Virus record (IMG/VR): IMGVR_UViG_3300042539_001224
Location: 1-37,196 of that record
Length of the DNA: 37,196 nucleotides
Strand: one strand, 5' to 3'
Source of the DNA: a virus
Below are positions 5,120 to 27,418 of this stretch, piece after piece. Position numbers and translations under genes: made by a program. A model generated the notes under the pieces. It searched no databases. It was not told the origin of the DNA and was given only the letters and a program-made list of their open reading frames with translations. Position 1 is the first letter of the stretch, and every line of letters starts with the position of its first letter.

Positions 5120-5561
5120 CGGTCACCTCGAAATCAACGGAGTTGAGCATGTGCGACGTGTCGATAAGCGGCTTCTCAAAGCCCTTGCGGGCAATCGTTG
5201 CCGGGGCGAGCGGCGGCGCGTTCGTGTCGACAATCGACTGCCGAAGTTGCCCGGCGATCCCCGCCCCCATGAGCTCAAGCGCCGCAGGGCCGTCGTAATC
5301 GTTGCCCTGCAGGATGCGCGCGAGAGACGGCCCCCACCCGTCGGCCTTGTCCGCGACCATGTTGGAAAAGAAAGGCCGGGGCGGGATGCCGCGCGACGGC
5401 GCGCCGAAGTTCTGAATTGCCGCCACGAGAGGTACGCTTGTGCCGTCCGGGTAGGTCGCGCCCTCTAGGAAGCCAACGCGCAGCGTGCCGGGCTTGCCGA
5501 CGCGCTTTGCAAGGTCACGAAGGTACGCCTCTAGCTTCGCGCCGCCCTTGATCGTGGCCAT
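5109..5561 (-). CDS. Neck / virion morphogenesis protein (HK97 gp10-like)
   Basis: This is a 150-aa protein. VAAIQNFGAPSRGIPPRPFF is the hallmark of the gp10-like and Mu virion-morphogenesis families: an aromatic-Gly turn followed by IPPRPF. The N-terminus is basic (MATIKGGAKLEAYLRDLAKRVGK). The C-terminus, LIDTSHMLNSVDFEVTGG, is the usual strand that ends these proteins. It is expected at the head-tail interface. It lies 3 nt after the DUF4054 connector, the common order connector, neck, terminator, sheath. Confidence 0.75.
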   Translation of the reverse strand: MATIKGGAKLEAYLRDLAKRVGKPGTLRVGFLEGATYPDGTSVPLVAAIQNFGAPSRGIPPRPFFSNMVADKADGWGPSLARILQGNDYDGPAALELMGAGIAGQLRQSIVDTNAPPLAPATIARKGFEKPLIDTSHMLNSVDFEVTGGP

Positions 5562-5564
5562 GCG

Positions 5565-5993
5565 TCACCGCCGAAAGATCGAAGCGTAGGAGTTGGACAC
5601 CGGCGGCGCGACGTAGCGGAAGCCGCGGTACTTGGCGACGGCTTGCCAGAAGGCCGCGCCGTATTTCGTCTGCAGCCACCACGCGGACGAACCGGCCGGC
5701 GGGCCCATGTCGGCGGATACGGTCACGCTGCCCTGCGTCGCGCTGTTGATGCGGCCGACGAGCGGCGATGCGCCGGGCATGTTGAGGGCGGCGATATGCG
5801 CCGTGACCATATTGAGAAGCGCGAGGCGAGGCTGGTAGGTGACGGCGTCGGCGGGCACTACGGACGCGTCGTCGTTGGCCAAATAGAGGCCGGCTTCCGC
5901 GAAGTACTCGACGGCGAGGGGCTCGTCGACAACCGTCGCCAATTCCGGATACCGGGTCGACCAAGACCCGTAATCGAAAACGGCGACGGTCAC
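5565..5993 (-). CDS. Head-tail connector, DUF4054 family
   Basis: The 142-aa product ([21 protein letters not shown]) matches the DUF4054 layout. It has F..RYPE.A.V at the N-terminus, an acidic [10 protein letters not shown] helix, [17 protein letters not shown] in the middle, and [20 protein letters not shown] near the end. Members are helical adaptor proteins that bind the portal ring and extend the channel. It sits between the capsid-proximal small gene and the neck gene, as expected. Confidence 0.8.
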
Positions 5994-6001
5994 CGGACGG
6001 C

Positions 6002-6373
6002 CTAGTTTTTGTCGGCGGGCGTGACGCCAGCGGCGGGCTTGCTCGGGTCGAGCGGCTCAAGGCCGGTCTTCAGTTCCGCAAGCTCGCGGGCCTGCGCCCG
6101 AGCGTTCGCGCCGTCCGCCTGCGCAAACACGAGGCCGCGGGCGTAGGGGCCGTAGCCTGCGTTCTCTTTGACCCATTGCTCCCAAAATTTGGCGGGAACA
6201 TTAGGAGTCAGGCCGTACGCGCCGGCGAGCTCGTGCGTCGCGATCGGCATGCCGTTAACGTCAGTCGCCAGACGCGCGCCGTTGAGGGTCACGCGTTGGC
6301 GGGTGCCGTCCGAGCCGCGGTTTTCGAGATGAAGGCCGTTCGGGAGTTTGCAGGCGACGGTGACCGTGTCCAT
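6002..6373 (-). CDS. Hypothetical protein downstream of the capsid gene
   Basis: This is a 123-aa protein. The N-terminus [19 protein letters not shown] has the look of a small conserved phage family that follows DUF2184 capsid genes. The region [27 protein letters not shown] is helical and the C-terminus is low-complexity ([12 protein letters not shown]). The role is unknown; a capsid-associated or head-completion function is plausible from position. It starts 3 nt after the capsid stop. Confidence 0.7.
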
Positions 6374-6376
6374 GGC

Positions 6377-7432
6377 CTAGACCCCGAGCATCGACGAGAT
6401 GGCGAACGGAAGGCGGATGATCGCGCCCCACGTGCCCTGCGACTTCTTCTGCTTGTAGGCGGACAGCTCGACGACGATCGGGTGCGCACGCATCTTCTCG
6501 GTGAAGGCGCAATACCCGGTGTCCTGCCCGTCCACGCTCGTCGCGATGAGCTGCACGAGCTCGCCGGCCGCCGTGTCGTACTCGACAGCGGTCTTGACGG
6601 TGATGTTCGGGAAGTTCTTTTTCAGAAGGTCGGCGACGCTGACGTTGAAGCTGTTGGTCGCGGTGAGCGCGATCGAAGAGCCCGGGCTCATGGCCAGCGT
6701 CATAGGCTGATCCATGTTGATCGTGCCGTTGGCCTGCGCGTTGAGCTGGACATAGAGCGACTGGATATCGCTGTACACTTCGTTCGCGGTGGCCGTGATG
6801 ACACCGGCGGTGACCCACGGGCCGTGAGCTTGGGTGTTGTACGCCTTCGCGCCCGGCTGCAGGGACGCGGACAGGCTCGGGTCGTTGAGCAGACCGTAGT
6901 TCTGCAGGCCCGAGATCCCGAAGAAGTAGGACCGGTTTTGAAACTTGTTGAGCGTCAGCGCCGACGCCACGTTGAGCTGCGCCGCCATGCCGATCTTGGC
7001 CGCGCCCCACATTTCCAGCGTCTTCTCGCCCCATTGGGTGATGGTCTGGTAGTGGTAGGATTGGCGCATGGGGAAGTTGACGTTCATCCCCACGCTGCCG
7101 TTGTCGCTGTAGTCGCCGTAGGCGCTGACTTCGCCGGTGTTCTCGACAATCGGGAACGTGGCGGTGGTCATCGTCCAATCGCCCTTTTTGACCTCGCCGA
7201 GAATGTCGGCGGCCTGCATCGGCGACACAAGGACGCGGATGAGATCCGGGTCGATGAAGTTGGTCAGGTACGCGGGGATGCCGGCGTTGCTCGTGGTGAC
7301 GAGCGTCGGCAGGGCGTCCATTGCGAACGCGAAGTCCCGGGCGATCTCCGGAGACACGTAGTCCGTGGCCCCCGGAAGGATAATGCCGTAGTCGCGCTCG
7401 ACGCGCGAGAAATCAGCGTGGCGACGCGTCAT
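6377..7432 (-). CDS. Major capsid protein (DUF2184)
   Basis: The 351-aa protein matches the DUF2184 major capsid family. It has an N-terminal MDALPTLVTTSNAGIPAYL segment, an FPIVENTGEVSAYGDYSDN loop, NFPMRQSYHYQTITQWGEKT, and the C-terminal GQDTGYCAFTEKMRAHPIVV strand before the A-domain end (IIRLPFAISSMLG). It forms the HK97-fold shell. There is no obvious long N-terminal scaffold. The protease/scaffold gene lies two genes upstream with the cement gene between them, a normal arrangement. Confidence 0.9.
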   Translation of the reverse strand: MTRRHADFSRVERDYGIILPGATDYVSPEIARDFAFAMDALPTLVTTSNAGIPAYLTNFIDPDLIRVLVSPMQAADILGEVKKGDWTMTTATFPIVENTGEVSAYGDYSDNGSVGMNVNFPMRQSYHYQTITQWGEKTLEMWGAAKIGMAAQLNVASALTLNKFQNRSYFFGISGLQNYGLLNDPSLSASLQPGAKAYNTQAHGPWVTAGVITATANEVYSDIQSLYVQLNAQANGTINMDQPMTLAMSPGSSIALTATNSFNVSVADLLKKNFPNITVKTAVEYDTAAGELVQLIATSVDGQDTGYCAFTEKMRAHPIVVELSAYKQKKSQGTWGAIIRLPFAISSMLGV

Positions 7433-7435
7433 GGT

Positions 7436-8359
7436 TTACCCCGGAGCCTGAGAAGACATTTTGATCAGCTCGCCCGCGCCGCCGATCGAAGCGGAATACC
7501 ACTTCGTCTCAACTGCGCCGGCGGCGGTGATGGTGGTGCTCGACGCGGTCTGCGTCGGGGAGACGATGTACGTCCCGGTGCCGCCCGTCCCGGTGCCGAG
7601 CGCCGAAATGAACGTGCCGGCGGTGACGCCGGTTCCGGACAGGACGTCGCCGATATCGAGCGAGCCCGAGCCAACCGCCGACACGGTGAGCGTGCCGTAG
7701 GTGCCCGAAACAGTGGTGCTCGCCGCGGTCTGCAGGATGCTCACGGCGTAGGTGCCGACGCCGCCGGCGGTGCCGGTGAGCTGGCGAGTGACGCGCGTGC
7801 CGGTGGTGACCCCGGTGCCCGAGATCGTGCCGCCAACGACGACAGTGCCCGAGCCAACCGCCGTGACGGTGAGGGTGGTGTCGGCGATCGAGCCGGTAAC
7901 GGAGAAGGTCGACGCGGCGATCGCCCCCGTGACGCTCGCCCCGGTCGGGGCGGTGCCGGTCGCGGCGAAGGTGACCGCGCCGGTGGCGTAGTTGGCGTAC
8001 GCCTTCAGGCCGATGGTCACGGCGTTGGATCCGCTGTTGGTCACCCAAAAGTCGCCGGCGCTGTGCAGGACGACGGGGAGCCCTTGAGGGATGACGTTGC
8101 TCGTCGACGCGAGGAACGTGGTAATGAGACCGACTTGGCCAGAGCGCGCCACGAAGCCGGTGACGAGGCCCGGACCGGCGTTGGCGACGGTGGTGTCGGT
8201 CGCTTCGTCGGCCCAAGCAAAGCGGCCGACGGTCACGCCGGCCGCGCCGGCGACAAAGCCGTTTTCATTCGTCAGCACGACGGCGCGCGGATTGGCGCTG
8301 GCGAAGTCACCCGCGACGGCGGGAGCCGGCGTGATTTTGACCGTGGTTTGAAAAGACAT
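7436..8359 (-). CDS. Structural cement protein (Gp24-like) with C-terminal beta-repeat extension
   Basis: Residues 1-135 follow the structural-cement Gp24 pattern: [64 protein letters not shown]. These proteins bind at capsid contacts and stabilise the shell. Residues about 150-282 are a two-unit Gly/Thr-rich repeat nearly the same as one in the sheath, followed by a short tail ([20 protein letters not shown]). At 307 aa it is roughly twice the length of the core alone. It lies between the protease and capsid genes. Confidence 0.8.
7514..7912 (-). repeat. Two-unit Gly/Thr-rich beta domain in the cement protein
   Basis: Residues about 150-282 repeat a 66-aa pattern: [55 protein letters not shown], then [50 protein letters not shown]. 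It matches the sheath insert at 3304-3696 over its whole length, with both units in the same order. Confidence 0.85.
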
Positions 8360-8371
8360 GGCGCGGCGTCC

Positions 8372-9724
8372 TTACGCGATCTTCAGGGCTTGGGCGGTCG
8401 GGAACCGCGAGCGGAATTCAGCGTCCGCCTTGGCATCCAGCGCGATGCGCGGGGCCTTCGGTTCGCTGGCGTCCGGGCGGGGGAGCATCTTCACCATGGC
8501 CGGGAAGGCGGACGGGTGGACGCCCTTGGTGTCGATCTTGGCGGCGTCGAGCGCGAGCTTGTACACCGCGGCTGCGCTGTCCATGCCCATCACTTCGCCC
8601 ACGTAGGGGAACACGGCCTTTTCGGCGGCGCGAATGTCGGCCACTTCCTTGAGCGTGGCGGAACGGATGGCGGCGGCGTCCATGGCGGGCTTCACCTTGT
8701 CTTCGTCTTCGTCGTCCATGTCTTCGTCGTAGCCGTCTTGCGCGGCCGGCGCGGCGCTCATGGCGCGAACGGCGGCGAGGGTCTCGTCGTCGACCTTGCC
8801 TTCAAGCATGGCGCAGATGCGCGACACGACGTCGCCGTCGTCATCGATGGCCGGCGGCTTGTCGGAAATGTCGGGCTCGGGGATCATGTCGGGCTCGTCG
8901 GCGGCGAGGCCGCCGCTGCCTTGCACCGCGCCGATCACTTTGATGACGTCGTCAACGTCAATGCCTTCGTCGGCGGCCAGTTTGGGGGTGACGGCGCGAA
9001 TCAGGCGCGGGGCGAGATCCTTGGTGGCGCTCTTGAAATTCTTGCGGGTGACGTCGCGGCAGAACGGCGTGGCGTCAAACGCGACGCCGTCGGCCAGCTT
9101 GGGCCCGATGAGGGCAGTCAGAGCGCCCGAGAGCATCAGTGCCGTGCGAGATTGAAGCGCCATGTGCCCCTCGAATTGACTGTCCCCGACGACAACGTCG
9201 GATCCGGCGCGCCCCTCTTCGACGAGCGCAACGTGGTTCCCGACGATGTTTCGCATGATTCCGTCGTAATGCAAACCCTTGTAGGTGCCCGGGGTCATGT
9301 CCGGGGTGTACCGGTACGCGCAAGACCATTCCTGTTGCTCGCGGCTCTCGATCCCGGCGATAGCCGGCCCGGACCACACAACGGCGGAATTCAGCAGGTA
9401 CGGGTCGCGAAAGACCGCGTCCGTGCCCGTCGAGCCGACGACGAGACCGGGCATATGCGAGTCTTCATCGTTCGCCGTGACCGGAACGTGTTTGGACAGG
9501 ATTGGCAGGTTGTTGAAGGTCGGGGCGGCCTTGGCCAGCTCTTCCGGGTCGCGCAACAGGCGGTACACGCGGCCCGGCTCAAGCCCGAGAGCTTCCGCGC
9601 CCGGGATCTCGTGACCGTAGTACGGGTTTACCGTCGCCTTTGAGATCCGCGTGACGCGGACGTGCAGCCGCCCGTCGACGTCATAGACGCGCACGGACCG
9701 GTCAAAGGCAAGACGATTGCTCAT
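8372..9724 (-). CDS. Capsid maturation protease with scaffold region (DUF2213)
   Basis: This is a 450-aa protein. Residues 1-180 match DUF2213 proteases: MSNRLAFDRSVRVYDVDGRLHV, the PYYGHEIPGAEALGL segment, FNNLPILSKHVPV, and the catalytic-type GNHVALVEEGRAGSDVVVGD. The His and the Ser/Asp-rich turn after it fit a herpesvirus/HK97-like serine protease fold. The remainder is acidic (DEDMDDEDEDKVKP) and helical, as expected for a scaffold. The protease cleaves the scaffold during prohead maturation. It lies upstream of the cement and capsid genes. Confidence 0.85.
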   Translation of the reverse strand: MSNRLAFDRSVRVYDVDGRLHVRVTRISKATVNPYYGHEIPGAEALGLEPGRVYRLLRDPEELAKAAPTFNNLPILSKHVPVTANDEDSHMPGLVVGSTGTDAVFRDPYLLNSAVVWSGPAIAGIESREQQEWSCAYRYTPDMTPGTYKGLHYDGIMRNIVGNHVALVEEGRAGSDVVVGDSQFEGHMALQSRTALMLSGALTALIGPKLADGVAFDATPFCRDVTRKNFKSATKDLAPRLIRAVTPKLAADEGIDVDDVIKVIGAVQGSGGLAADEPDMIPEPDISDKPPAIDDDGDVVSRICAMLEGKVDDETLAAVRAMSAAPAAQDGYDEDMDDEDEDKVKPAMDAAAIRSATLKEVADIRAAEKAVFPYVGEVMGMDSAAAVYKLALDAAKIDTKGVHPSAFPAMVKMLPRPDASEPKAPRIALDAKADAEFRSRFPTAQALKIA

Positions 9725-15161: not shown

Positions 15162-15953
15162 CTAGCCCGCCTCGTCAAACCCGGGAATGATCGGCACGGC
15201 AACGCAACGACAGTTGATCTCGACGCCGGGCCACGTCCATTTTCCCTCTAGGAACGCGCCTTTCTCGACGTCGTACGTCTTGCCGCTGAAGGCGACGTGC
15301 TCGGGGCGCGGCTCTTTCCCGCCGCCCGAGTGCAGCCATTTGGCCCGCTTGATTCCGAGTTCACGCATGCGGACGCGGGTCATGACCGCCGTCGCTTTGT
15401 TGTTCTGGTCGCGGGCGATGAAGGCGGCCCGGCGCTTGGTGATGCCGGTGCGCGCCTGCAGCTCGCGCGTGAGGGTGGCGAGATCCCGGCCGGCCGCCAC
15501 GCTGCGCATGACGTCGCCCTGCACTTGCTGCAGGTAGTTACCGGCGATCGACTTGATGAGCCCGACGTTTTCGGCGACGACGGCCTGATAGGCGTCGTTC
15601 TGCGCGGCGGTCATCTTGAACCGCACCGTGAACCCGCGCTTGCGCAGCGTGGCGGCCAAGGTCCGGTCGCTGCGATCGGTGGCGGCCTTCGCGAAGTGCG
15701 CGGCGAGCTCGTCGGCCAGCTTGTCGAAATTGCGTTGCCAGCGCCGGGCGAGCTTGCGCATGGCCGCCTCCATTTCCCGGGCAGGGCTCGCGTCCTGCGC
15801 CAAGGCTTCCGGCGGGTGGGCGCGGTAGTTGGCCCGGGTCCAGTAGATCACGCTGGCGACCATGTCGTCGATCGCCTTGTCGAGCTCGCGCCGGTACGCC
15901 GCAGCGACGCCTGCGTTCGGGTGGATCGGAGCGAGTGCTTTTTTCGTCGACAA
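15162..15953 (-). CDS. Minor head protein, MuF / SPP1 gp7 family
   Basis: The C-terminal half has the MuF signature: RAAFIARDQNNKATAVMTR, MRELGIKRAKWLHSG, a H..FSGKTY turn and GVEINCRCVAVPIIPG. I start at a TTG at 15953 (LSTKKALAPIHPNAGVAAAY), where homology to family N-termini begins, giving 263 aa. A GTG at 16010 would add 19 residues, but it reads through the divergent plus-strand promoter repeats and has no SD-like sequence. Neither start has a strong RBS. MuF proteins lie inside the capsid near the portal and aid DNA entry. It should be next to the portal gene but is cut off from it by the plus-strand island. Confidence 0.85.
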   Translation of the reverse strand: MSTKKALAPIHPNAGVAAAYRRELDKAIDDMVASVIYWTRANYRAHPPEALAQDASPAREMEAAMRKLARRWQRNFDKLADELAAHFAKAATDRSDRTLAATLRKRGFTVRFKMTAAQNDAYQAVVAENVGLIKSIAGNYLQQVQGDVMRSVAAGRDLATLTRELQARTGITKRRAAFIARDQNNKATAVMTRVRMRELGIKRAKWLHSGGGKEPRPEHVAFSGKTYDVEKGAFLEGKWTWPGVEINCRCVAVPIIPGFDEAG

Positions 15954-15954
15954 A

Positions 15955-16008
15955 CTGATATCCGCTATTGCATCTGATATCCGATACGCGTAGAGTCTGA
16001 CTGTAGCC
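15955..16008 (+). promoter_or_regulatory. Promoter/operator region for the plus-strand island
   Basis: There are two direct copies of CTGATATCCG at 15955-15964 and 15974-15983, 19 bp apart, about two helical turns. The downstream part TCTGACTGTAGCC is shared with promoters A and B. A possible promoter is TTGCAT (15968-15973), a 17-bp spacer and TAGAGT (15991-15996). AGGAG precedes the ATG at 16029. This is the divergence point between MuF (minus) and the island (plus). Confidence 0.5.
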
Positions 16009-16028
16009 ACTCAACAGGAGTTAGACAA

Positions 16029-16421
16029 ATGGCCGAGGTTCTCTATTCCTTCCCCGCCTACAGCGTCGTCGAGTGCCCCCGCTCTTGGAGACGCGAGCTG
16101 GACGGCGAGAAAATCCCGGTGTTTCGCGCCGGCGACGAGCTCGCTTTGATCTCCGACCCGCGCCGGCACTACCAACTCGGGTCGGTGGCCAGCTACGCCA
16201 TAAGCAACGACAGTTGCCCCATCGAAGCCGTCGAGCGCGCCCGGGGCTTCGGCCACGAGCTGCACTACGCCTTCGCTCTTGGGTCGTCGATCGTCTCGCA
16301 CGATCGGGAACGGGTCGAATACTACGGCGTCGAGATCGGCGACAAGATCCGCTTTGAAGGCCGCGTGTTTGAGTTGGTCGCGCAACCGAACAACAACATT
16401 GGCTTGAAGCCGGTCGCCTGA
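16029..16421 (+). CDS. Hypothetical protein, first gene of the plus-strand island
   Basis: The 130-aa protein (MAEVLYSFPAYSVVECPRSW) has no recognised domain. It looks like a compact alpha/beta protein (DKIRFEGRVFELVAQPNNNIG near the C-terminus). An AGGAG ribosome-binding site lies just upstream of the ATG. It is followed by a GC hairpin and then another small gene. Its presence in a separate, opposite-strand cassette suggests an early or accessory ('moron') function rather than a structural one. Confidence 0.65.
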   Translation: MAEVLYSFPAYSVVECPRSWRRELDGEKIPVFRAGDELALISDPRRHYQLGSVASYAISNDSCPIEAVERARGFGHELHYAFALGSSIVSHDRERVEYYGVEIGDKIRFEGRVFELVAQPNNNIGLKPVA

Positions 16422-16426
16422 CTTTC

Positions 16427-16442
16427 GGGGGCTTCGGCCCCC
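16427..16442 (+). terminator. TTCG-loop hairpin after the 16029 gene
   Basis: GGGGGC-TTCG-GCCCCC is a 6-bp perfect stem with a stable UUCG-type loop, a few bases after the stop. No clean U-run follows (TCCCTTCTC), so it may be a weak terminator or an mRNA-stabilising element. The surrounding 50-60 nt are repeated around 17,061. Confidence 0.5.
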
Positions 16443-16468
16443 TCCCTTCTCACAAGGAACCTGACACC

Positions 16469-16768
16469 ATGAAAGACTGGCTTGAAATGACGGAAGCGGA
16501 ACAGGACGCCGCCAACGCCGAAGCCTACGCCGCCGCGTGCGACCGCCTCCGAGACGCCTTGAGTCACCCCGCCGTCGACATGGCCGGCGCGCGTCGCCTC
16601 GCCGCTGCCCGACTCGCGGGGGACGTCGCTGAAGCGCGGCGCGAGATCCTGCTCGGCGAGCGCGCCCGGGCGACCAAAATGGACAAGCGGGCGGCGGCAA
16701 ACGCCCGCGCTCGATTGCCGGCGCTCGGGCTCGTCGAAGGCTTCATTTGGGATGCGGAATTGAGTTGA
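16469..16768 (+). CDS. Hypothetical helical protein
   Basis: The 99-aa protein is Ala- and Arg-rich and probably all-helical (EAEQDAANAEAYAAACDRLRD, ARATKMDKRAAANARARLPAL). An AAGGA box stands about 10 nt before the ATG. The stop codon falls inside the -35 box of the next promoter (A). I recognise no family. Confidence 0.6.
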   Translation: MKDWLEMTEAEQDAANAEAYAAACDRLRDALSHPAVDMAGARRLAAARLAGDVAEARREILLGERARATKMDKRAAANARARLPALGLVEGFIWDAELS

Positions 16769-16805
16769 CCGCCCCGTCATATCTGATATCTTCTGACTGT
16801 AGCCA
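16763..16805 (+). promoter_or_regulatory. Promoter A (43-bp copy 1)
   Basis: -35 TTGACC (16765-16770), 16-bp spacer, -10 TATCTT (16787-16792). TGAC-CGCCCC-GTCA forms an inverted repeat over the -35 and spacer. The 43 bp are identical to promoter B at 17436-17478. It drives the 16849-17055 gene. Confidence 0.7.
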
Positions 16806-16848
16806 CGGCGCGGCAATTCCGCCGGCGCCTTTTCCCCGGGAGGGTCCG

Positions 16849-17055
16849 ATGCTTGTGAAGTTTTCCACGCTGGCCGGCGGCGTTTTCATCGAAGTGCGAG
16901 CCGATGCCGAGAGTTACGGGCCGGCGGATCGCTGCTTCCGGTTCGATGAAGACGGCCGTTCCGAATGGGCGTCGTACGCGGACCTAACAAGCGCGAACCC
17001 TGCGCCAAGATGGTTTGGCCACGCTTTCCGCGCCGCGGACTTTGAGTTCGCCTGA
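16849..17055 (+). CDS. Small hypothetical protein
   Basis: I start at the ATG at 16849 (MLVKFSTLAGGVFIEVRADA), after GGGAGGG; the open frame extends upstream only through promoter A. The 68-aa product is strand-rich with conserved-looking aromatics (ADRCFRFDEDGRSEWASYAD) and ends FRAADFEFA. The role is unknown. It is one of the separately promoted island genes. Confidence 0.6.
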   Translation: MLVKFSTLAGGVFIEVRADAESYGPADRCFRFDEDGRSEWASYADLTSANPAPRWFGHAFRAADFEFA

Positions 17056-17060
17056 CTCTC

Positions 17061-17076
17061 GGGGGCTTCGGCCCCC
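17061..17076 (+). terminator. TTCG-loop hairpin, second copy
   Basis: GGGGGC-TTCG-GCCCCC with the same flanks as the hairpin at 16427 (GCCTGACT.TCGGGGG before, AAGGAACC after). No U-tract follows. It is probably a duplicated intergenic element. Confidence 0.5.
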
Positions 17077-17101
17077 ACCCTCAACATAAGGAACCACGCA
17101 A

Positions 17102-17428
17102 ATGGGAATTATCGTCTCTGTCCTCCGTGACGCCGCCGGCGGCGACTGCAGCTTGAACGGCGTGTCGAGCCGCTTTACCGATCTCTGCGTCGTGAACGTC
17201 CCGGGCCCCTTTGAGCCCCGCCCCGACCGCCCCGCCGCGATGCTCCTCGCGAACCACTACGGCACGGCTAAGGTCGTCCCGGTCGACGACGCCGGCAACG
17301 TCCGCCCGGGCGGCATGTTCGGGGGCAACTTCGTCAGCTCGTCGGACAGCAGGTGGGGCGACGCGGTCGCGAAGATCATCGGCGTGCGCATGACGGCGGT
17401 GCCGGTCCACGATCGGTACGAATGGTGA
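17102..17428 (+). CDS. Hypothetical protein
   Basis: This is a 108-aa protein (MGIIVSVLRDAAGGDCSLNG). An AAGGAACC stretch precedes the ATG. Mixed alpha/beta appearance with SRFTDLCVVNVPGPFEP and AAMLLANHYGTAKVVPVDD. I recognise no domain. It follows the second TTCG hairpin and shares the leader type with the 16469 gene. Confidence 0.6.
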   Translation: MGIIVSVLRDAAGGDCSLNGVSSRFTDLCVVNVPGPFEPRPDRPAAMLLANHYGTAKVVPVDDAGNVRPGGMFGGNFVSSSDSRWGDAVAKIIGVRMTAVPVHDRYEW

Positions 17429-17435
17429 CGATTTA

Positions 17436-17478
17436 AGTTGACCGCCCCGTCATATCTGATATCTTCTGACTGTAGCCA
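17436..17478 (+). promoter_or_regulatory. Promoter B (43-bp copy 2)
   Basis: -35 TTGACC (17438-17443), 16-bp spacer, -10 TATCTT (17460-17465), identical over 43 bp to promoter A and including the TGAC-N6-GTCA inverted repeat. GGAGAG just downstream provides the RBS for the 17492 gene. Confidence 0.7.
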
Positions 17479-17491
17479 AAGGAGAGAAGAA

Positions 17492-18085
17492 ATGGCCCTC
17501 AAAGAGATCCACCGTTACGTCCCCGCCGGGAGCGTCAAGGTCGCCGACAAGAAGTCGGACGCCGTCGCCTACCTCTACGAAGTCAAGAGGGGCGAGCGGG
17601 TCGACTTCGTCGCGGTCGCCTACCACGGCAAGGCGGGGAAAGCCGATTGGCACTTCCGCTACGCCAGCGCCGCCGCCCGGGAAGCCAAGGTCAAGAGCCA
17701 CTTTGAGTGGCGGCAGGCCGTCGCCGCGGCCAAGGTCGAGCGGGCCGAAGTCATCAAGGCGAAGCGGGCCGCCGGTCACAAGCTGGAGGTCGGGCACATT
17801 CTGGTGTGCTCATGGGGCTACGAACAGACGCAGGTCGACTTCTACCAAGTCGTCCGGTTGGTCGGCAAAGCGAGCGTCGCCCTCGTGAAAATCCCGGCGG
17901 TGGCCATGGAAGCCTCCGGTCCCATGTCGGACCGGGTCATGCCGGGCGGGAGCGAAGAGCTCGCCAGCGGCGAAGAGATCATCAAGCGGGTCTCTGCCTA
18001 CGACGGCGCGAGCGTGAGCATGAACAGCTACAGCAGCGCCTACCTTTGGGACGGCAAGCCGCGCCACCGGAGCTGGTACTACTAG
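17492..18085 (+). CDS. Hypothetical protein, largest gene of the island
   Basis: I start at the ATG at 17492 after GGAGAG; the frame upstream is promoter B. The 197-aa protein (MALKEIHRYVPAGSVKVADK) has an N-terminal beta part, a Lys/Arg/Ala-rich helix at residues 62-95, then GHILVCSWGYEQTQVDFYQV and strands to a polar C-terminus (SYSSAYLWDGKPRHRSWYY). I have the impression of related phage and plasmid proteins of unknown function but cannot name a family. Confidence 0.65.
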   Translation: MALKEIHRYVPAGSVKVADKKSDAVAYLYEVKRGERVDFVAVAYHGKAGKADWHFRYASAAAREAKVKSHFEWRQAVAAAKVERAEVIKAKRAAGHKLEVGHILVCSWGYEQTQVDFYQVVRLVGKASVALVKIPAVAMEASGPMSDRVMPGGSEELASGEEIIKRVSAYDGASVSMNSYSSAYLWDGKPRHRSWYY

Positions 18086-18091
18086 CCGAGC

Positions 18092-18115
18092 GAGAGGGGG
18101 TTGACGCCCCCTCTC
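18092..18115 (+). terminator. Hairpin with the -35 box of promoter C in its loop
   Basis: GAGAGGGGG (18092-18100), loop TTGACG (18101-18106), CCCCCTCTC (18107-18115): a perfect 9-bp GC-rich stem directly after the 18085 stop. The 6-nt loop is exactly the -35 hexamer of promoter C. No U-tract follows (AATCTGATATC), so termination strength is uncertain. Confidence 0.65.
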
Positions 18116-18151
18116 AATCTGATATCATTTAGCTGCAGACAGAGGAGAGAT
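18097..18151 (+). promoter_or_regulatory. Promoter C (55-bp copy 1)
   Basis: -35 TTGACG (18101-18106), 16-bp spacer, -10 TATCAT (18123-18128; 5 of 6 to consensus). The 55 bp, which include the GAGGAGAG ribosome-binding site, are identical to promoter D at 18383-18437. Confidence 0.75.
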
Positions 18152-18155
18152 CACG

Positions 18156-18383
18156 GTGTGGGTTCGGGGAAAAGACGCGGAACAGCCCGGCAAGTTTGCC
18201 TTCGAGCTGTACGAAGGTCGCGAGCTAGTCCAGCGGGTCGGCGGGTTCGCCAACGCTCAAGACGCCGACCGCGCCGCCGAAAAGGCCCAACGGGCGCTGA
18301 TCTTTCCGCCCGAATTCCGGGAGATCCCGGACGACATTGCCGCCATGAGCAACGCCGAATTGCTGGCCGAGCTCGGGTTTTAG
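18156..18383 (+). CDS. Small hypothetical protein
   Basis: This is a 75-aa protein starting at a GTG at 18156 after GAGGAGAG. Short acidic protein with FAFELYEGRELVQRVGGFAN and a helical AQDADRAAEKAQRALIF. The layout resembles small DUF-type phage proteins with a ferredoxin-like or coil fold. I recognise no family. Confidence 0.6.
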   Translation: MWVRGKDAEQPGKFAFELYEGRELVQRVGGFANAQDADRAAEKAQRALIFPPEFREIPDDIAAMSNAELLAELGF

Positions 18384-18437
18384 GGGTTGACGCCCCCTCT
18401 CAATCTGATATCATTTAGCTGCAGACAGAGGAGAGAT
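18383..18437 (+). promoter_or_regulatory. Promoter D (55-bp copy 2)
   Basis: -35 TTGACG (18387-18392), 16-bp spacer, -10 TATCAT (18409-18414). Identical to promoter C over 55 bp. The hairpin is shorter here (AGGGG...CCCCT) because its 5' arm falls in the previous gene's stop region. Confidence 0.75.
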
Positions 18438-18441
18438 AGAC

Positions 18442-18669
18442 ATGGCCAAGGAATTCTACGTCAGCATGATCCGCGAGGGCCGCGTCCAACGCGTCGCGCT
18501 CCTCGCCGGCCCCTTCCCCGAGCACGACGCGGCCCTCGCCATGGTCGAGCCGGCGCGCAAGCTGGCCTACGAAGCCGACCCCCGGTCGCATTGGGACCTG
18601 TTCGGCACGGTCGGCCGCGAGAGCGACGGCCGTAAAGGCGTTCTCAACGCTCGCCTTGGGTTGGCCTAA
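18442..18669 (+). CDS. Small hypothetical protein
   Basis: This is a 75-aa protein (MAKEFYVSMIREGRVQRVAL). GAGGAGAG lies before the ATG. The pattern of an initial strand, a basic turn and an amphipathic helix (AALAMVEPARKLAYEAD) is like small DNA- or protein-binding phage modulators such as host-takeover proteins. I can name no function. Confidence 0.6.
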   Translation: MAKEFYVSMIREGRVQRVALLAGPFPEHDAALAMVEPARKLAYEADPRSHWDLFGTVGRESDGRKGVLNARLGLA

Positions 18670-18673
18670 GACC

Positions 18674-18829
18674 ATGGGCCAAAAACCCCGCCCGTACACC
18701 GCCCGCCCGGTTGTGATACGCTTCGATCCCAAGGCCCTCGCCTTGCTCGACGCATGGCCCGGCGAGTGGGGCCGCACCCGCAAGATCAACGCTCTGATCG
18801 AACAGACGCTAGGAAAGCCCCCGAAATGA
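18674..18829 (+). CDS. Small ribbon-helix-helix-like protein (51 aa)
   Basis: The ATG at 18674 opens 51 codons ending in a TGA at 18827-18829. The sequence PVVIRFDPKALALLDAW followed by RTRKINALIEQTLG fits a short Arc/CopG-type ribbon-helix-helix unit: a strand with alternating residues, helix one, a turn, helix two. It overlaps the next start (ATGA). It may be a small DNA-binding regulator of the island. The fold call is by eye. Confidence 0.6.
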   Translation: MGQKPRPYTARPVVIRFDPKALALLDAWPGEWGRTRKINALIEQTLGKPPK

Positions 18830-19089
18830 TGCACCTAATACCGACCCCCGCGGGCGCGTTCGCGTTCGTCGGGCAAGTCCCGGCCCCGCTGGCCTTCGTG
18901 AGCACCGACCCGAAATACCTTGACTACGCCGCGCAGTCCGGGCCGGGGCTCGCGAGCAAGATCGCCAAGCGCGAAGGCGGCGTCTTCAAGACGAGATCCT
19001 ACCCAACCCGCGAGGCGGCCGAAAGCGCCGCTTTGGAATGGGCGGGGAGCGCCGAAGAGCTCGCCAAGCACTATTCCGGCGGCTCTTGA
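18826..19089 (+). CDS. Hypothetical protein, last gene of the island
   Basis: The start is MM (ATG ATG at 18826/18829) within ATGA of the RHH gene; the frame also runs upstream but only through that gene. The 87-aa protein has a strand-rich start (MMHLIPTPAGAFAFVGQVPA) and a helical C-terminus (TREAAESAALEWAGSAEELA). The gene ends in the middle of a convergent minus-strand gene (19071-19202), with a 19-nt overlap and no space for a terminator. Confidence 0.6.
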   Translation: MMHLIPTPAGAFAFVGQVPAPLAFVSTDPKYLDYAAQSGPGLASKIAKREGGVFKTRSYPTREAAESAALEWAGSAEELAKHYSGGS

Positions 19090-19202
19090 TCCTCCGGCTT
19101 CTTCAGCCACGCCGGCACTTCGATTTGAAGCGACGTCTCGTCTCGCAAGGGGCGGGCGTCATCTTCGTACAGGTCCGGGTCTTGCGCGTACGATTTGGTC
19201 AT
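19071..19202 (-). CDS. Small acidic protein (43 aa) after the portal
   Basis: The ATG at 19202 overlaps the portal stop (ATGA), and the frame runs 43 codons to a TAG at 19071. The product starts [15 protein letters not shown] and ends EVPAWLKKPEDQEPPE, so it is acidic and proline-rich. Translational coupling to the portal gene supports it. The role is unknown; a small late structural or assembly accessory protein is possible. Confidence 0.6.
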   Translation of the reverse strand: MTKSYAQDPDLYEDDARPLRDETSLQIEVPAWLKKPEDQEPPE

Positions 19203-21664
19203 TTGTCACTCTGCGATATGAGCGCCGGCGGTTCCCCGGGCGGCACGTTGTTGTCCCGGAATGACCACGCATCGACGAGACCCTTGATCCCTTCGAACGA
19301 TTCTTCGTTGCGGGTGTTCTGCAGGACCACGGCGGGCGGGACGTAGCGGCCGGCGCGGGTGAACCGCTCGACGGCCCGTTTCGCGGCCTCTTGGCGCGGG
19401 AGGTGCATATAGTGCGCCTCGACCCGGTAACCACTGTCTTTGAACCCCTCGACGAGCGCCTTGGCTTTCTCGGGCGATTTCAGCGTCGCGTCGTGGACAA
19501 GATTCAGGCCGGCGGCCTTGGCCAACCGGGTAATCTCGTCGGATATCTCGCCGCTTTCCTCGTGAACCTGCGCGGCGTTCCATCCTTCGTATTCAGGAAG
19601 CTGCGCCTTGATATGGTCCGGGTCCAGTACGATAGCCTTGGACGGGTCGTAAACGACGCCGGAAAGTTTTGACTTGCCCGACCCGCCGCGTCCGCCCAAC
19701 ACCGTAAACGTCGGGGCTTGTCCTGCCTCCGGACGTGCCCGGGCGACCGCTTCTTCCGACAGAAGATCCGTGATGATCTTTTGATGCAGGGCGCGACGCT
19801 CGGGCGTCCAGTTGCCTTGCGCGTCACGGTGTTGGTCGACGGTCGGTTTCGACTCGTCGACCCGGGCCTGCACGGACTTTAGGCGCGCCGCAGTGTCGAT
19901 CGGAAACCCGTTGAGAATGTCCGATTCGCTCACGTCGAATTTGTCGTGCAGCTTGGCGTATTCTGCGGCGTTGAATTGCGAAGGCGGAATGTAGCGGTGG
20001 CCAGCGGCGAGGAGTTTTTCCCGCGCCGCTGGGCTAAAATCCATTTTGGACCCGCCGCCCGGGGCGGCGCTGGCCGGCTCGGGGCTCTTGGGCGGGGCTT
20101 TGGCCTTCCCGCCGCTCGCGCCGCCGCCACCGCTCCCGAATTGGCCGTTTGCGGCGCGCGGGTGTTTGCTTTCTTCCCACTCCCCGGCCGCGTCCTGCGC
20201 GGGGGGCTCCTCGCCCTCAAGCGCCGGGTCGCCCTCTAGGCCGGGGTCGGCCGGCGGCTCGGGCGGCGGGGCGGACAGGTCGATTGCGTGATAGGGCCCG
20301 TTCTCGTCGGCGGCCAGTTGATTGCGGATCTCTTCCGGCGAAAGCACACCGCCGTCGACGTACACCATGTCCCGGTCGGCGTTGGTCTTGCGAATGGTCG
20401 CGACCGTAGCGTCGTCGTCTTCCCAAAGGCTGTTGAACGTAAAGGTGACGTCTTCGTCAATGTCGCCAAATTCGTTGAGCTGCAGGATATCGAGCACGGT
20501 CTTTAGGTGCGTCGCGAAGAGGTGTTGCTGTTGCGAAGCGATCCACGCGTAGTAGGTTTTGATCTCCCCGTCGCTCGACGCGTTGAGCCCCGACGGCGTG
20601 ATGCCCAACAGGACGACAAGCGGGATGCCGGCGACGCTGGCCATTTGCTCTTGGCTCTGCGCCTGCAGCGCGTCGAGCGTCGACAAGGGCGTTGAGACAT
20701 TGACGAAGTCTTCGGTGTCCATATCGAGGAGCGAGACGCCCCGATTGTCACGCATGCGGTTGTACAGCTCCGCCCGGGCGATCAGGTCGTCAGCGCCGCC
20801 GCCCTGCAACACCGCCGCCATGTTGGTCTTGAGAACGTCTTTGCTGTAGCTATGCAGCAGGTCGCTCACCGATTGGCGCGTGCGAATCCAGTTGTCGACA
20901 TACGGCAACGCCATTTGCGACAGGCTCACGCCGCCGAAGCTGTACGCCGGCTTCAGCAGGTCCGGAACCTCCCGCGACACGAACGTCAGCAGGCGCGAGG
21001 CGTGAACCTTCTTGCCCATGACGAACCACGATTTAGGCCGGTAGTAATGCGCCTTGAGCGGGTCGGCGCTGTTGTAGTTGTCCGGGTATGTCCAAACGGG
21101 CTCGACGGGGCGGAAGGCGAGGAGCGATCCGACCTTGATCTTGCGCTTGTCGACGAAGAGCGGCGCTTCAAGCTCTGCGGCGTCGTCGGTCTTCCCGGTG
21201 TCGACGTACAGGTGCGCGCGGCCGAAGAAACTGTCCAGCTCTGCGACGCGCTGGAAATGCGCCCGGACGTCGAATCGTTCCATAGCGGCGGTAAGCTGCG
21301 CGACGCGCTCGCTCTTGTCATCCTCGCCGGCCGCCGACAACGTGACCCACCGACGGGTCATGTCCTTAGCGATGATCTCGCTCATGCGGCGGTATTCAGG
21401 CCGCTGCGCAAGGGTCGCGAGGTACGGGTAGCCTAGGAAGGTTAACCCCCCGTCATAGCCGCCGTAGGGCGAGGAAAGCGCCCACTCGTACACGGTCACG
21501 GCGTCGTCCTGCGCCATAACAACCGCGTCGGGCGCGACGCCGGGCGGCGGGCTCGCCGGCGCAAAGGGGTTGGGGGCGCTGGCATGGCGCTCACGGCCCG
21601 GGCCGGCGGTAGCGGCGGTCGGAAGGGTGATTTTAAGCGCGGCCTTCGTCGGCTTGCTGGTCAT
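19199..21664 (-). CDS. Portal protein (DUF1073) fused to a C-terminal zeta-toxin-like kinase domain
   Basis: The protein has 821 aa. Residues about 50-460 follow the DUF1073 portal layout: [104 protein letters not shown]. Residues 494-540 form a Gly/Ala/Pro linker with the HPRAANGQF motif that I associate with enzyme-bearing phage virion proteins. Residues 650-800 look like a zeta-toxin/UDP-sugar kinase: P-loop GGRGGSGKS (657-665), [14 protein letters not shown] (D681), [25 protein letters not shown], and an Arg-rich [11 protein letters not shown] lid. The portal ring occupies one vertex and would carry the kinase domain. The substrate is unknown. Confidence 0.85.
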
Positions 21665-23259
21665 ACCTGTTTCACGGCCCCGGAGTTGATGCGCATGGGT
21701 TCGCGCGAGGTGCGACTGTATGCGATCATGACGGAGTCGGCTAGGTTCGGCGACTTGCTGTCATCCGGCGCTTTGTCAACGACGATCTTGCCAGACAGGT
21801 TGAGGCTGTACGTCGGTTGGGAAAGCTCCCCGGACAGCTTGGACAGCAGCGGCAAGTCCGGGTCGATCGAAATGATATCGTCCGGATTGTACGGGGCCGA
21901 CGCGGTCACCGCCCGGTGCGTGGCGCGGAACCGCTGGCGTAGCCCCCACCACGCTTGAGCCTTGGAATTGGAGAAAAAGTCTTCGTTCTTCCGGCCGGGC
22001 TCGTCTTGTCCAAGCGGGTTGAACACCGCCGCGGACCCCCGGAACGCCCGGGCGTCAAGAAACGGCCGACCTTCCTTGCCGCGCAGTTCGTTGATGACCC
22101 GGGCGTCGCCGCGCACGCCTGCCCCGAGCCCGTCCGCATCGTACAGGAAGCCCGGGAGGCCGTGCTTGTCGCACATACCAAAGGCGCGTTGCGTGCTGCC
22201 GAAAATGTCGTCGCCTACGCCCTTCCACTCGTCGAGATCCAACAGGCGCGGGCCGTGGCGGACGGCAAAGGCGAGGCTGTCCTTCCCTTCGTCGGCCACG
22301 TCAAAACCCCCGACCCGCGCGCCCGTCGGCGCAATCCCGAGCTTGGCGCACGCGTTAATGGCCGATTGAATCCACGCGGACGGGATAAGCACGCCCTCTG
22401 CGGACGCGCTGTAATCCCGGTCGACTTCCTGCGCGAGCGTCACGGGATCCAGCTCGTCTTTTTTCGCCTCGTACCACGCGTCATCTTTGCGGGGGTCGTC
22501 GCGCCAATCGAAAATGAAGACGCTGATTTTGCCGGAATGGCGCTTGATCTCAAACGGGTTGCCCCGGCCGTTGACGCTTGACATGTCGATACGGCAGTTG
22601 GTCGTTGCGGACAGGGACGCGTCGACAAGGCCCGGGCGCTCAAGGTGCGCGGACTCGTCGACGAAATAGATCGTCTTGCGGTCGCCGCGGCCGATGTTGT
22701 CGCCGGCCTCCCCCGTGATCGTTGACCGGGTCGCCGGGAATTTGATTCGCATATGGGGCGCGTCGTTCTTCAGCGACCACCCGGCTTTGAATTCGGGCGG
22801 CAGGCCGTGAATGAACATACGCGCCTTGAAGAACAGCGACTTTGGGTCGTCCAGCTTGTCGACGTACTCTTCCTTGCGCGACCCAAAGCCGATCGAGATC
22901 CCTTCGTGGAACAGGCAAAGCGTCGACGCGAGACCCACCGCGAGCCACGAAATCCCGCAATCCCGGCTCTTCTCCGTGATCCCCGGCTTGCGCGCCCGCC
23001 ATTGTTCCATGACCCATTCGATCCATTCCGTTTGCTTGGGGAACAACAGAAAGGGAATGGACGTCGGGAGGCCGATATCCGCGTTCCGGGGATCGAAGGT
23101 GACGCCCCAATCGTTGATGAACGCCGCGGGCTTGTCTCGATAGTATGCGCGCAGATAGGGCAGGCGCGCGTCGGGGTCTTCCCGGATCCACTGAAGCCGG
23201 CGCATGCGAGCCGCAAAGATCGGGACGTAGTCGGGGTTTTGCCAGTTAAAGTCTGGCAT
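21661..23259 (-). CDS. Terminase large subunit
   Basis: The 532-aa protein has both terminase domains. The ATPase domain has a divergent P-loop, [10 protein letters not shown] (96-105), and Walker [11 protein letters not shown] (D201, E202). The RNase H-like nuclease domain has [11 protein letters not shown] (D320) and YDADGLGAG (D374). It packages DNA at the portal vertex and cuts the concatemer. It overlaps the portal gene by ATGA. The small subunit is about 3 kb upstream, separated by the lysis genes; that split is seen in some phages. Confidence 0.95.
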
Positions 23260-26241: not shown

Positions 26242-26270
26242 TGTTAACCGAACGCCGCGCTTCGTGTCAA
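26242..26270 (-). promoter_or_regulatory. Promoter for the TetR_N gene, with an inverted repeat in the spacer
   Basis: Minus strand: -35 TTGACA (26270-26265, full consensus), 17-bp spacer, -10 TTAACA (26247-26242). The spacer carries CGAA-N8-TTCG (plus-strand 26249-26264), a good operator candidate for the gene it drives. It overlaps the last codons of the small terminase gene by 4 nt. Confidence 0.6.
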
Positions 26271-27019
26271 CCTTGCCCGGCCTTCAGGAAGTCCTCGTAC
26301 GCCCGGGCCGCCGCGTGCGGATCGTCAGCGGCGAGCTGCGCGACCTTGGCGACGACGCCTAGCGCCCCCGTCAAGTTCACGTTGTCTTTGAAGCCCCCGA
26401 GCATGCGGACGATGTTTTCCGCGCTCTTGCTCTGATCGGCGACGATGATCTCAAGCCCGCGGTTCGTTTTCTTCAGGCCGCGGTACAGCAGCCGCCCGCC
26501 GGGCGACAGGTTCCCGGTCGGCTTGTAGATCGGGTGCGGGATGCCCGCGCCGGCGCACTCGGGGCAGTCAGGGTGCGGCGGGTGGAAGGGACGCCACCCA
26601 AGGCCGCCCATAGGCGCGGGCAGTTCGGTCCCGTTCTTTGACGCGAGATCCACCGCCCGGGCGTACTCTTCGTCGCGCCACTGATGCTGGAATCCCTCGC
26701 CATTGCAGTAGCGGCAGTTGCCCCACTTGAGCTCCATAAGCTCGTTAGGGTCGGCCTGCACGATCATGACGTCGCGCACGAACATGTCGGCCAGCGTCAC
26801 GGTCACGGGGGCGGTCATGGTCGCCGCTTTGGCCAGCTCGTCGATCCTTGCGGAAATTTTGTGGTCGGCCAGTAGGCGCGACGCTTCGCTGGCGATCGTC
26901 GCGGGCTTGGTGTCCGGGCCGACGTTGTACGCAAAAACGTACGCAGCCGGGCCGTTACGATGCACGGCGTAGTGCTCGCAAAAAGCCTCTTGCTTGGCGG
27001 GGATAGCGGACTCGGCCAT
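26267..27019 (-). CDS. Terminase small subunit with zinc-type insert
   Basis: I start at the ATG at 27019 (MAESAIPAKQEAFCEHYAVH); the open frame continues upstream only into the repeat region. Residues 18-62 match the Terminase_2 HTH (AFCEHYAVHRNGPAAYVFAY, KPATIASEASRLLADHKISA). Two motifs CRYCNGEG (C102, C105) and CPECAGAG (C152, C155) form a DnaJ-like zinc pair inserted in the middle. It recognises the packaging start site. The repeat region next to it may include that site. Confidence 0.85.
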   Translation of the reverse strand: MAESAIPAKQEAFCEHYAVHRNGPAAYVFAYNVGPDTKPATIASEASRLLADHKISARIDELAKAATMTAPVTVTLADMFVRDVMIVQADPNELMELKWGNCRYCNGEGFQHQWRDEEYARAVDLASKNGTELPAPMGGLGWRPFHPPHPDCPECAGAGIPHPIYKPTGNLSPGGRLLYRGLKKTNRGLEIIVADQSKSAENIVRMLGGFKDNVNLTGALGVVAKVAQLAADDPHAAARAYEDFLKAGQG

Positions 27020-27101
27020 GGCCAACAGATACCTCGCGCGACGATGGTCACGCAATACCCCGACCGATACCCCGACCTTGAGCCCGGGTGTGGGTATCGA
27101 G

Positions 27102-27130
27102 CAAACCCTTACGCCACAACGGTTTGCGGG
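27102..27130 (+). repeat. 29-bp inverted repeat, left arm
   Basis: It begins CAAACCCTTACGCC and ends GGTTTGCGGG. It matches the reverse complement of 27343-27371 at 27 of 29 positions. The left arm itself contains the short inverted pair CAAACC/GGTTTG with a 13-nt loop. Confidence 0.85.
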
Positions 27131-27342
27131 CCTTGACGGCAAAAACATACCCCGACCTACGGTTTGGATCGGGGTATAGATAACCCATTGATATCTATAA
27201 TTAATTAGACATTTTACCCCTGATACCCAGTATATATCTAGATTGGCCCATATAATATTTCTCTTGTTTACATCATGCAGATGATAATAGGGTCCTGCCG
27301 CTCTAAGAAAACGCGTTTAGGTCGGGGTATCGGGGTATTTTT

Positions 27343-27371
27343 CCCGCAAACCCTTGTGGCGTAAGGCTTTG
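27343..27371 (-). repeat. 29-bp inverted repeat, right arm
   Basis: Reverse complement begins CAAAGCCTTACGCC and ends GGGTTTGCGGG; partner of 27102-27130. The two arms are 212 bp apart. Confidence 0.85.
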
Positions 27372-27418
27372 AGAGTACCCCGACTATCGGGGTATGGGTC
27401 GGGGTATCAGGGGTAAAA

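What the first reader, a model, noticed from the sequence alone, without database searches (positions are those of the whole stretch)
19199..21664. Portal protein fused to a zeta-toxin-like kinase
A DUF1073 portal (residues 50-460) is followed by a Gly/Pro linker with HPRAANGQF and then by a domain with P-loop [23 protein letters not shown], a HEES helix and an Arg-rich lid, as in zeta/PezT-type UDP-GlcNAc kinases. A portal ring of about 12 copies would carry the domain into the infected cell or hold it in the virion. I know that some DUF1073 proteins carry a C-terminal enzyme (such as the Acb1 phosphoesterase); a kinase in this slot would be a different cargo, possibly acting on nucleotide sugars, cell-wall precursors or host defence signals. 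The linker explains how it could move relative to the ring.
Basis: partly seen in the sequence, partly recalled or inferred. Interest (0 to 1): 0.8.

Follow-up and report, generated by a model that had tools for sequence, protein, structure and literature searches.

The report
Phage portal carrying a kinase cargo
A virus of bacteria has joined the ring protein through which its DNA enters and leaves the head to an intact zeta-toxin-type kinase, an enzyme that probably rides in the virus particle and acts on a small molecule of the host; carrying enzymes in this way is known, but this combination, and the kinase's repeated pairing with portals, had not been described in the papers I could search.

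Summary
One uninterrupted 821-aa frame (19199-21664, minus strand) encodes a DUF1073 portal (Pfam E 3e-86), a disordered linker of about 70 residues, and a zeta-toxin-family kinase module (E 4e-25; AlphaFold pLDDT 93.5; nearest PDB folds zeta, AvrRxo1 and PezT). The catalytic residues are kept in 58 diverged relatives, and the module evolves under strong purifying selection (pairwise dN/dS 0.05-0.10). The fusion occurs in 11 other IMG/VR contigs. Of 88 distinct modules, 11 are fused to DUF1073 portals and 36 lie downstream of an unrelated portal type, 34 of them directly. Other DUF1073 portals carry Acb1, Nudix, ART or zincin-like domains in the same slot, often behind the same HPRAxNGQF linker; most carry nothing. 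Two sister phages (TerL 94% identical) differ by exactly this module plus the opposite-strand genes beside it, so the cargo is optional. Iyer et al. 2017 already described effector fusions to portals and a zeta-like kinase fused to MuF, so this is a new variant of a known kind. The substrate is undetermined: UDP-GlcNAc contact residues are partly conserved and the score is far below NCBI's XopAJ/AvrRxo1 cut-off. Delivery into the host is inferred, not shown.

The parts
19199..21664 (-). portal-zeta fusion protein, 821 aa
   Evidence: single open frame; Pfam Phage_portal_3 + Zeta_toxin; start overlaps the terL stop by 4 bases
20369..21427 (-). DUF1073 / Phage_portal_3 domain (residues 80-432)
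   Evidence: Pfam E 3.2e-86; PHROG 146 portal E 7e-115
20036..20245 (-). disordered Gly/Pro linker (residues 474-543)
   Evidence: pLDDT mostly below 50 in the full-length model
20135..20164 (-). [10 protein letters not shown] linker motif (residues 501-510), recurrent cargo-boundary motif
   Evidence: found in cargo-bearing portals, absent from 48 portals without cargo; duplicated around extra modules in L002 and L003
19202..19987 (-). zeta-family kinase module (about residues 560-821)
   Evidence: 58-sequence alignment, AlphaFold pLDDT 93.5, Foldseek to zeta/AvrRxo1/PezT, purifying selection
19670..19696 (-). Walker [10 protein letters not shown] (residues 657-665)
   Evidence: K664 invariant in 58/58
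19616..19618 (-). catalytic Asp D683 (zeta D67, AvrRxo1 D193)
   Evidence: invariant in 58/58; alignment to 1gvn
19553..19564 (-). HEES helix start (residues 701-704)
   Evidence: E703 invariant in 58/58
21661..23259 (-). terminase large subunit, upstream neighbour
   Evidence: PHROG terminase large subunit E 2e-6
15162..16010 (-). MuF/SPP1 gp7-type head morphogenesis protein, next minus-strand structural gene
   Evidence: Pfam Phage_Mu_F E 2e-12; PHROG 324 E 5e-85
16757..19089 (+). opposite-strand gene array with four near-identical sigma-70-like promoters, lying between portal-zeta and muF
   Evidence: repeats, promoter pattern 4 hits against 0 expected, scan
18826..19089 (+). 87-aa protein convergent with portal-zeta; in 5/5 close portal-zeta relatives, 0/74 portal loci without the cargo; candidate partner or immunity gene

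Best explanation
The gene encodes a working portal subunit whose C-terminal tail carries, on a disordered tether of about 70 residues, a catalytically intact zeta-family small-molecule kinase. Shown: one continuous protein; portal fold and kinase fold; catalytic residues under strong purifying selection; the kinase module is optional for the phage and swappable with other enzyme cargo; the module is repeatedly fused to or encoded directly after portals. Inferred: the tail is built into the head with the portal ring, so that several copies travel in the particle, and the kinase acts on a nucleotide or nucleotide-sugar of the infected cell (UDP-GlcNAc-type sugar nucleotide or NAD-type nucleotide) to block wall synthesis or a nucleotide-based defence early in infection. 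Release from the ring, perhaps by the maturation protease cutting the linker, is a further inference without evidence here.
For: Fusion and folds. Active site: residues equivalent to zeta K46/T47/D67/K70/R158 are K 58/58, S/T 55/58, D 58/58, K/R 58/58, R 58/58 (zeta residues from PMC4938570). Selection: pairwise dN/dS of the module is 0.05-0.10 among L002-L005 at dS 0.35-0.61. Portal linkage: of 88 distinct modules 11 are fused to DUF1073 portals and 36 have a PF04860-type portal gene upstream, 34 immediately so; on the module tree the fusion label needs 6 changes, at least 2 forced by well-supported branches. Slot: DUF1073 portals carry Acb1, Nudix, ART or zincin-like cargo there, and L002/L003 have an extra ParB-like or GNAT-like module between two linker copies. 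Optional: L085 and L087 (TerL 94%) differ by this block. Precedent for head-delivered effectors fused to portal or MuF: PMC5512222, PMC9503650.
Against: No proteomics, activity or infection data exist; the phage is an uncultivated IMG/VR contig. A portal ring normally stays with the capsid, so delivery needs cleavage or another route that nothing here demonstrates. The gene sits in the head operon and should be expressed late, which also fits action in the producing cell. The substrate cannot be fixed from sequence.
Confidence: 0.5

Rival explanations
1. The kinase acts in the producing cell, not the next one: made late with the head proteins, it phosphorylates wall precursors (or NAD) to weaken the wall, help lysis or stop competing phages, and being tied to the portal is only a way to express it late and in quantity.
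For: It lies in the head operon next to terL and muF. Zeta and PezT phosphorylate UDP-GlcNAc and block MurA (PMC3062530). Four of the five UNAG-contact positions are identical or conservative.
Against: A translational fusion to the portal, arisen more than once, and other cargos in the same slot (Acb1, Nudix, ART) argue for carriage in the particle; a lysis helper would not need fusion.
Confidence: 0.25
2. The module is an AvrRxo1-like NAD 3'-kinase, so its effect is on NAD or NAD-derived defence signals rather than on the cell wall.
For: AvrRxo1 is the best single-sequence PDB match and has the highest TM-score normalised to the query (0.61). Both share the GNWxPERRxLH segment before the P-loop and a VHxES helix, which zeta and PezT lack. 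Nudix and ART cargos at other portals are NAD/ADP-ribose-related.
Against: The NCBIfam XopAJ/AvrRxo1 model scores 42 bits against a cut-off of 300. The profile built from the phage family matches zeta (57.6 bits) and PezT (44.9) better than AvrRxo1 (38.9). The substrate-site residues resemble zeta more than AvrRxo1, which keeps one of five (PMC4938570).
Confidence: 0.25
3. The kinase serves virion assembly or DNA packaging, for example by phosphorylating a head component or by ATP-dependent regulation of the portal.
For: Repeated pairing with portal genes of two unrelated families.
Against: About 60 of 80 related portals lack any cargo, and the sister phage L085 lacks it; unrelated enzymes occupy the same slot.
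Confidence: 0.06
4. The fusion is an assembly or annotation artefact, or a decayed passenger domain.
For: The window is a metagenomic virus contig.
Against: The same fusion is in 11 other contigs; the catalytic residues are conserved and dN/dS is low.
Confidence: 0.02

Closest known systems
Polyvalent and head-packaged effector proteins of phages (Iyer et al. 2017, PMC5512222), including MuF fused to a zeta-like kinase
   Same: An enzyme domain fused to a head structural protein in a packaging-gene context; a zeta-like kinase fused to MuF is explicitly reported there, as are PBECR and 2H domains fused to portals. Cyanophage PSS2 gp030 is a MuF + zeta example found here.
   Different: Here the carrier is the DUF1073 portal itself, the module belongs to a subfamily with a conserved N-terminal segment shared with AvrRxo1, and the same module recurs directly after unrelated portals. 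I found no report of portal-zeta fusions in the papers searched.
Epsilon/zeta and PezAT toxins (UDP-GlcNAc 3'-kinases)
   Same: P-loop kinase fold, Walker A, catalytic Asp, Thr118 equivalent and lid arginines.
   Different: Base-contact Thr128 not kept, Arg120 mostly Lys, extra N-terminal segment, no epsilon/PezA antitoxin identified, fused to a virion protein.
AvrRxo1/XopAJ (NAD 3'-kinase with Arc1 antitoxin)
   Same: GNWxPERRxLH segment and VHxES helix, similar fold over a longer stretch.
   Different: Far below the family cut-off; no Arc1 motif in the neighbouring 87-aa protein; substrate-site residues differ.
Portal-Acb1 fusions (anti-CBASS 2H phosphoesterase on DUF1073 portals)
   Same: Same portal family and same C-terminal slot (L094; L097 has a tail of the same length).
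   Different: The cargo is a hydrolase of cyclic nucleotides, not a kinase.

Membership tests
Phage portal, DUF1073 / Phage_portal_3 (PF06381) | Match over the curated Pfam cut-off across the portal core | tested here: met
   289.7 bits against 33.8, profile positions 2-355 of 357
Phage portal, DUF1073 / Phage_portal_3 (PF06381) | Position between terL and head morphogenesis genes | tested here: met
   terL 21661-23259 overlaps its start; muF, protease, cement protein and major head protein follow on the same strand
Zeta toxin family (PF06414) | Match over the curated Pfam cut-off | tested here: met
   88.7 bits against 22.3
Zeta toxin family (PF06414) | Catalytic residues equivalent to K46, T47, D67, K70, R158 | tested here: met
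   K664, S665, D683, K686, R767; conserved across 58 relatives (mapping)
UDP-GlcNAc 3'-kinase (zeta/PezT proper) | UNAG-contact residues E100, T118, R120, T121, T128 | tested here: inconclusive
   D709, T727, K729, S730, L737: one identical, three conservative, one lost
UDP-GlcNAc 3'-kinase (zeta/PezT proper) | Phosphorylates UDP-GlcNAc at the 3'-OH | not testable with these tools
   needs biochemistry
UDP-GlcNAc 3'-kinase (zeta/PezT proper) | Cognate epsilon/PezA-type antitoxin | tested here: inconclusive
   No known antitoxin recognised; an 87-aa convergent gene co-occurs with the module but has no known family
XopAJ/AvrRxo1 (NF041405) | Score over NCBI's curated cut-off | tested here: not met
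   42.3 bits against 300
XopAJ/AvrRxo1 (NF041405) | Arc1-type partner with KExFD...ExxYY motif | tested here: not met
   motif absent from the neighbouring 87-aa family (motif from PMC4938570)
Virion-packaged polyvalent effector | Enzymatic domain plus virion structural domain in one polypeptide, in packaging-gene context | tested here: met
Virion-packaged polyvalent effector | Presence in particles and transfer into the host | not testable with these tools
   needs proteomics and infection assays

The most novel reading that the evidence does not exclude
Portal, linker, zeta kinase and the opposite-strand promoter array form one mobile cargo-plus-immunity cassette. The kinase is a virion-borne toxin or effector, and the convergent 87-aa protein (18826-19089), driven from the repeated promoters on the other strand, is its dedicated antitoxin, so that the phage can make and load a toxic portal safely. 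In sister phages the whole block is present or absent as a unit.
Probability: 0.13. Interest if true: 0.75.

Novelty: new variant of a known kind. Interest (0 to 1): 0.52.

Why it matters
It makes testable whether phages use the portal ring, present in a fixed copy number, as a carrier for enzymes meant for the host. A zeta-type kinase that recurs beside or on portals of unrelated families points to a conserved role at the start or end of infection. The pair of sister phages with and without the cargo (L087, L085), and the linker motif that marks cargo boundaries, give a practical way to list further portal-borne effectors.

Tried and rejected
Literature searches for 'polyvalent proteins + zeta toxin', 'portal protein + zeta toxin' and similar gave no paper describing this fusion; only the held open-access library was searched. 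Searches failed on wrong frames or handles and carry no evidence; one search was a report that did not fit the schema. PADLOC gave no hit for the fusion or the opposite-strand genes. Among 50,697 cultured phage records no portal-zeta fusion was seen: the portal half matches 1069 records, while the kinase half matches only 16 (PSS2 MuF fusion, haloviruses, Bacteroides phages). An internal start that would free the kinase was considered (a Met near residue 543) and rejected because L087 has none there. A link to SpoT/MESH1-like HD genes downstream of stand-alone modules was seen in 21 of 123 loci (many of them near-copies) against 0 of 76, but they do not occur beside this portal-zeta gene, so I draw no conclusion. 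Co-occurrence of the 87-aa gene with the module is confounded by shared descent and by one contiguous block, so it is kept only as the novel case. I fetched no crop-pathogen effector sequence; comparison with AvrRxo1 rests on the PDB, NCBIfam and paper results.

Full report
Observation. The frame at 19199-21664 on the minus strand is a single 821-aa protein without stops. Pfam finds Phage_portal_3 (DUF1073) at residues 80-432 with E 3.2e-86 and Zeta_toxin at 645-785 with E 4.4e-25, both far over the curated cut-offs; PHROGs agrees on the portal. The gene lies in a head operon on the minus strand: small terminase 26267-27148, large terminase 21661-23259, portal-zeta, then MuF 15162-16010, DUF2213 protease 8372-9724, cement protein 7436-8359, major head protein 6377-7432 and sheath 2269-4191. 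The window is an IMG/VR virus record of 37,196 bases.

The kinase module. AlphaFold on residues 545-821 with 58 aligned sequences gives pLDDT 93.5 and pTM 0.88. Foldseek against the PDB puts zeta toxin (1gvn, 3q8x; E 3e-9), AvrRxo1 (4z8q-4z8v; TM up to 0.61 on query length) and PezT first, then polynucleotide kinases. The 58-sequence alignment keeps the residues that PMC4938570 lists as catalytic in zeta (K46, T47, D67, K70, R158) as K664, S665, D683, K686 and R767, at 55-58 of 58 allowing S/T and K/R. R773 and T727 are invariant too. Among L002-L005, pairwise dN/dS for the module is 0.05-0.10 at dS 0.35-0.61, about as low as for the portal. It is a maintained, probably active enzyme.

Substrate. 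The zeta residues reported to contact UDP-GlcNAc (E100, T118, R120, T121, T128; PMC3062530, and PMC4938570) map to D709, T727, K729, S730 and L737: one identical, three conservative, one lost. AvrRxo1, which phosphorylates NAD and not UDP-GlcNAc (PMC5087710; PMC5491322), shares a GNWxPERRxLH segment and a VHxES helix with the phage module, but NCBI's XopAJ/AvrRxo1 model scores only 42 bits against a cut-off of 300. I therefore assign fold and chemistry (a small-molecule P-loop kinase), not the substrate.

Who else has it. Scans of IMG/VR and of GTDB species genomes gave 68 and 14 loci with relatives of the module, and a profile-guided scan reported 182 viral matches, of which 80 were kept. After removal of identical modules, 88 remained: 11 are fused to a DUF1073 portal; 34 lie immediately downstream of a PF04860-type portal gene and 2 a little further; 5 have too little upstream sequence; 36 lie elsewhere. 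In L009, for instance, the portal gene (3512-5278) overlaps the start of the module gene (5275-6894). At least one of the 36, L039, has a diverged DUF1073 portal gene (3030-4436) shortly upstream that my local profile missed. Three fusions to MuF were seen (L053, L054 and cyanophage PSS2). On a tree of 85 modules the portal-fused state needs six changes, of which well-supported branches force two, and the window's clade of six sits among unfused modules. L136 carries a very different zeta kinase in the same slot, which suggests a separate acquisition.

The slot. Of 80 related DUF1073 portals most end near residue 500 with no cargo. Those with a tail carry zeta, Acb1 (L094), Nudix (L106, L132) or ART (L090, L125, L161) by Pfam, or an HExxH zincin-like stretch read by eye (L113, L152). 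The motif HPRxxxGQF/GKF occurs in 15 of 24 long portals and in truncated L021, and in none of the other 48 short ones. In L002 and L003 an extra ParB-like or GNAT-like stretch (read by eye) sits between two copies of the linker, whereas L004 and L005, with portals 88-94% identical to theirs, lack it. The linker thus marks cargo boundaries. In the full-length model residues 474-543 are disordered while the portal and kinase parts are mostly well predicted, with a low overall pTM of 0.46, as expected for a tethered domain.

Optional cargo. L085 and L087 have TerL 94% identical; the window's TerL is 79-80% identical to both. Their DNA aligns through the portal and again from the start of muF, but 2.5 kb in L087 is replaced by about 41 bases in L085. 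That block is the linker, the kinase and the opposite-strand genes. The portal therefore works without the kinase, which speaks against an assembly role.

Mechanism. Shown here: fusion, folds, active-site conservation, selection, portal linkage, swappable and optional cargo. Follows from published work: enzymes fused to MuF or portals are thought to be packaged and injected (PMC5512222, PMC9503650). Inferred: the kinase rides in the head on the portal ring and acts on a nucleotide-type small molecule of the host. Because a portal ring normally stays with the capsid (general knowledge), delivery would need release, perhaps by the maturation protease at the linker; nothing here tests that. Action in the producing cell is the main rival.

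Novelty. Iyer et al. 2017 state that zeta-toxin-like kinases are fused to MuF in phages and that PBECR and 2H domains are fused to portals. BFVD already holds uncultured phage proteins with this kinase fold, one annotated Acb1. The portal-zeta combination, the recurrence of this module directly after portals of another family, and the linker-bounded slot are new as far as the papers I could search tell. I rate it a new variant of a known kind.

Limits. All evidence is comparative; the virus is uncultivated and its host unknown. Pattern-based collection scans are not exhaustive, several loci are near-copies, and the library covers open-access papers only.

Noticed in passing
window 16757-19089 (+): Opposite-strand gene array between portal-zeta and muF with four near-identical sigma-70-like promoters (TTGAC(C/G)...TATC(A/T)T, 0 expected by chance) followed by RBS-like sequence. 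Relatives L003, L004 and L021 have their own repeated promoters at the same place, so each phage keeps its copies alike.
   Followed up: partly
window 18826-19089 (+): 87-aa protein of no known family, convergent with portal-zeta; in 5 of 5 close portal-zeta relatives and 0 of 74 portal loci without the cargo. A profile-guided IMG/VR scan found it nowhere else except one weak partial match (L169).
   Followed up: partly
window 27055-27407: Eight copies of ATACCCCGA (0.16 expected) in near-symmetric inverted arrangement around an AT-rich core, plus a 29-nt inverted repeat (27102-27130 / 27343-27371), between the small terminase gene and a plus-strand gene: looks like a replication origin or operator.
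   Followed up: partly
L011, L017, L027, L039, L047, L070 (downstream of the zeta gene): HD_4 (SpoT/MESH1-like) genes follow the stand-alone zeta gene (Pfam-confirmed in L039, L047 and L070), and an InPase gene lies further on in L070; InPase is fused to the zeta protein in L024 and L046. A possible nucleotide-metabolism cargo cluster.
   Followed up: partly
L007, L009, L013, L018, L020, L025 (N-terminal part of the zeta protein): A conserved, repeat-like N-terminal region with no Pfam hit (in L007, L013 and L025) and an ANRPGLxLxxxTDKxGHxxKRW motif precedes the kinase in portal-adjacent proteins, which often also have short C-terminal IILFLK-like tails.
   Followed up: no
L125, L134, L160, L161 (portal tails): A shared module reading by eye like a HipA or actin-fragmin-type kinase (GGVYTDDAGGKFYVKKP...DNQG...LDVGG) sits between HPRxxDGKF linkers on DUF1073 portals, followed by an ART domain in L125 and L161; Pfam did not name it.
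   Followed up: no
window 16414-16461 and 17048-17095: Two copies (88% identical) of a GC hairpin-like sequence TCGGGGGCTTCGGCCCCC, about 350 bases upstream of the promoter copies at 16765 and 17438.
   Followed up: no
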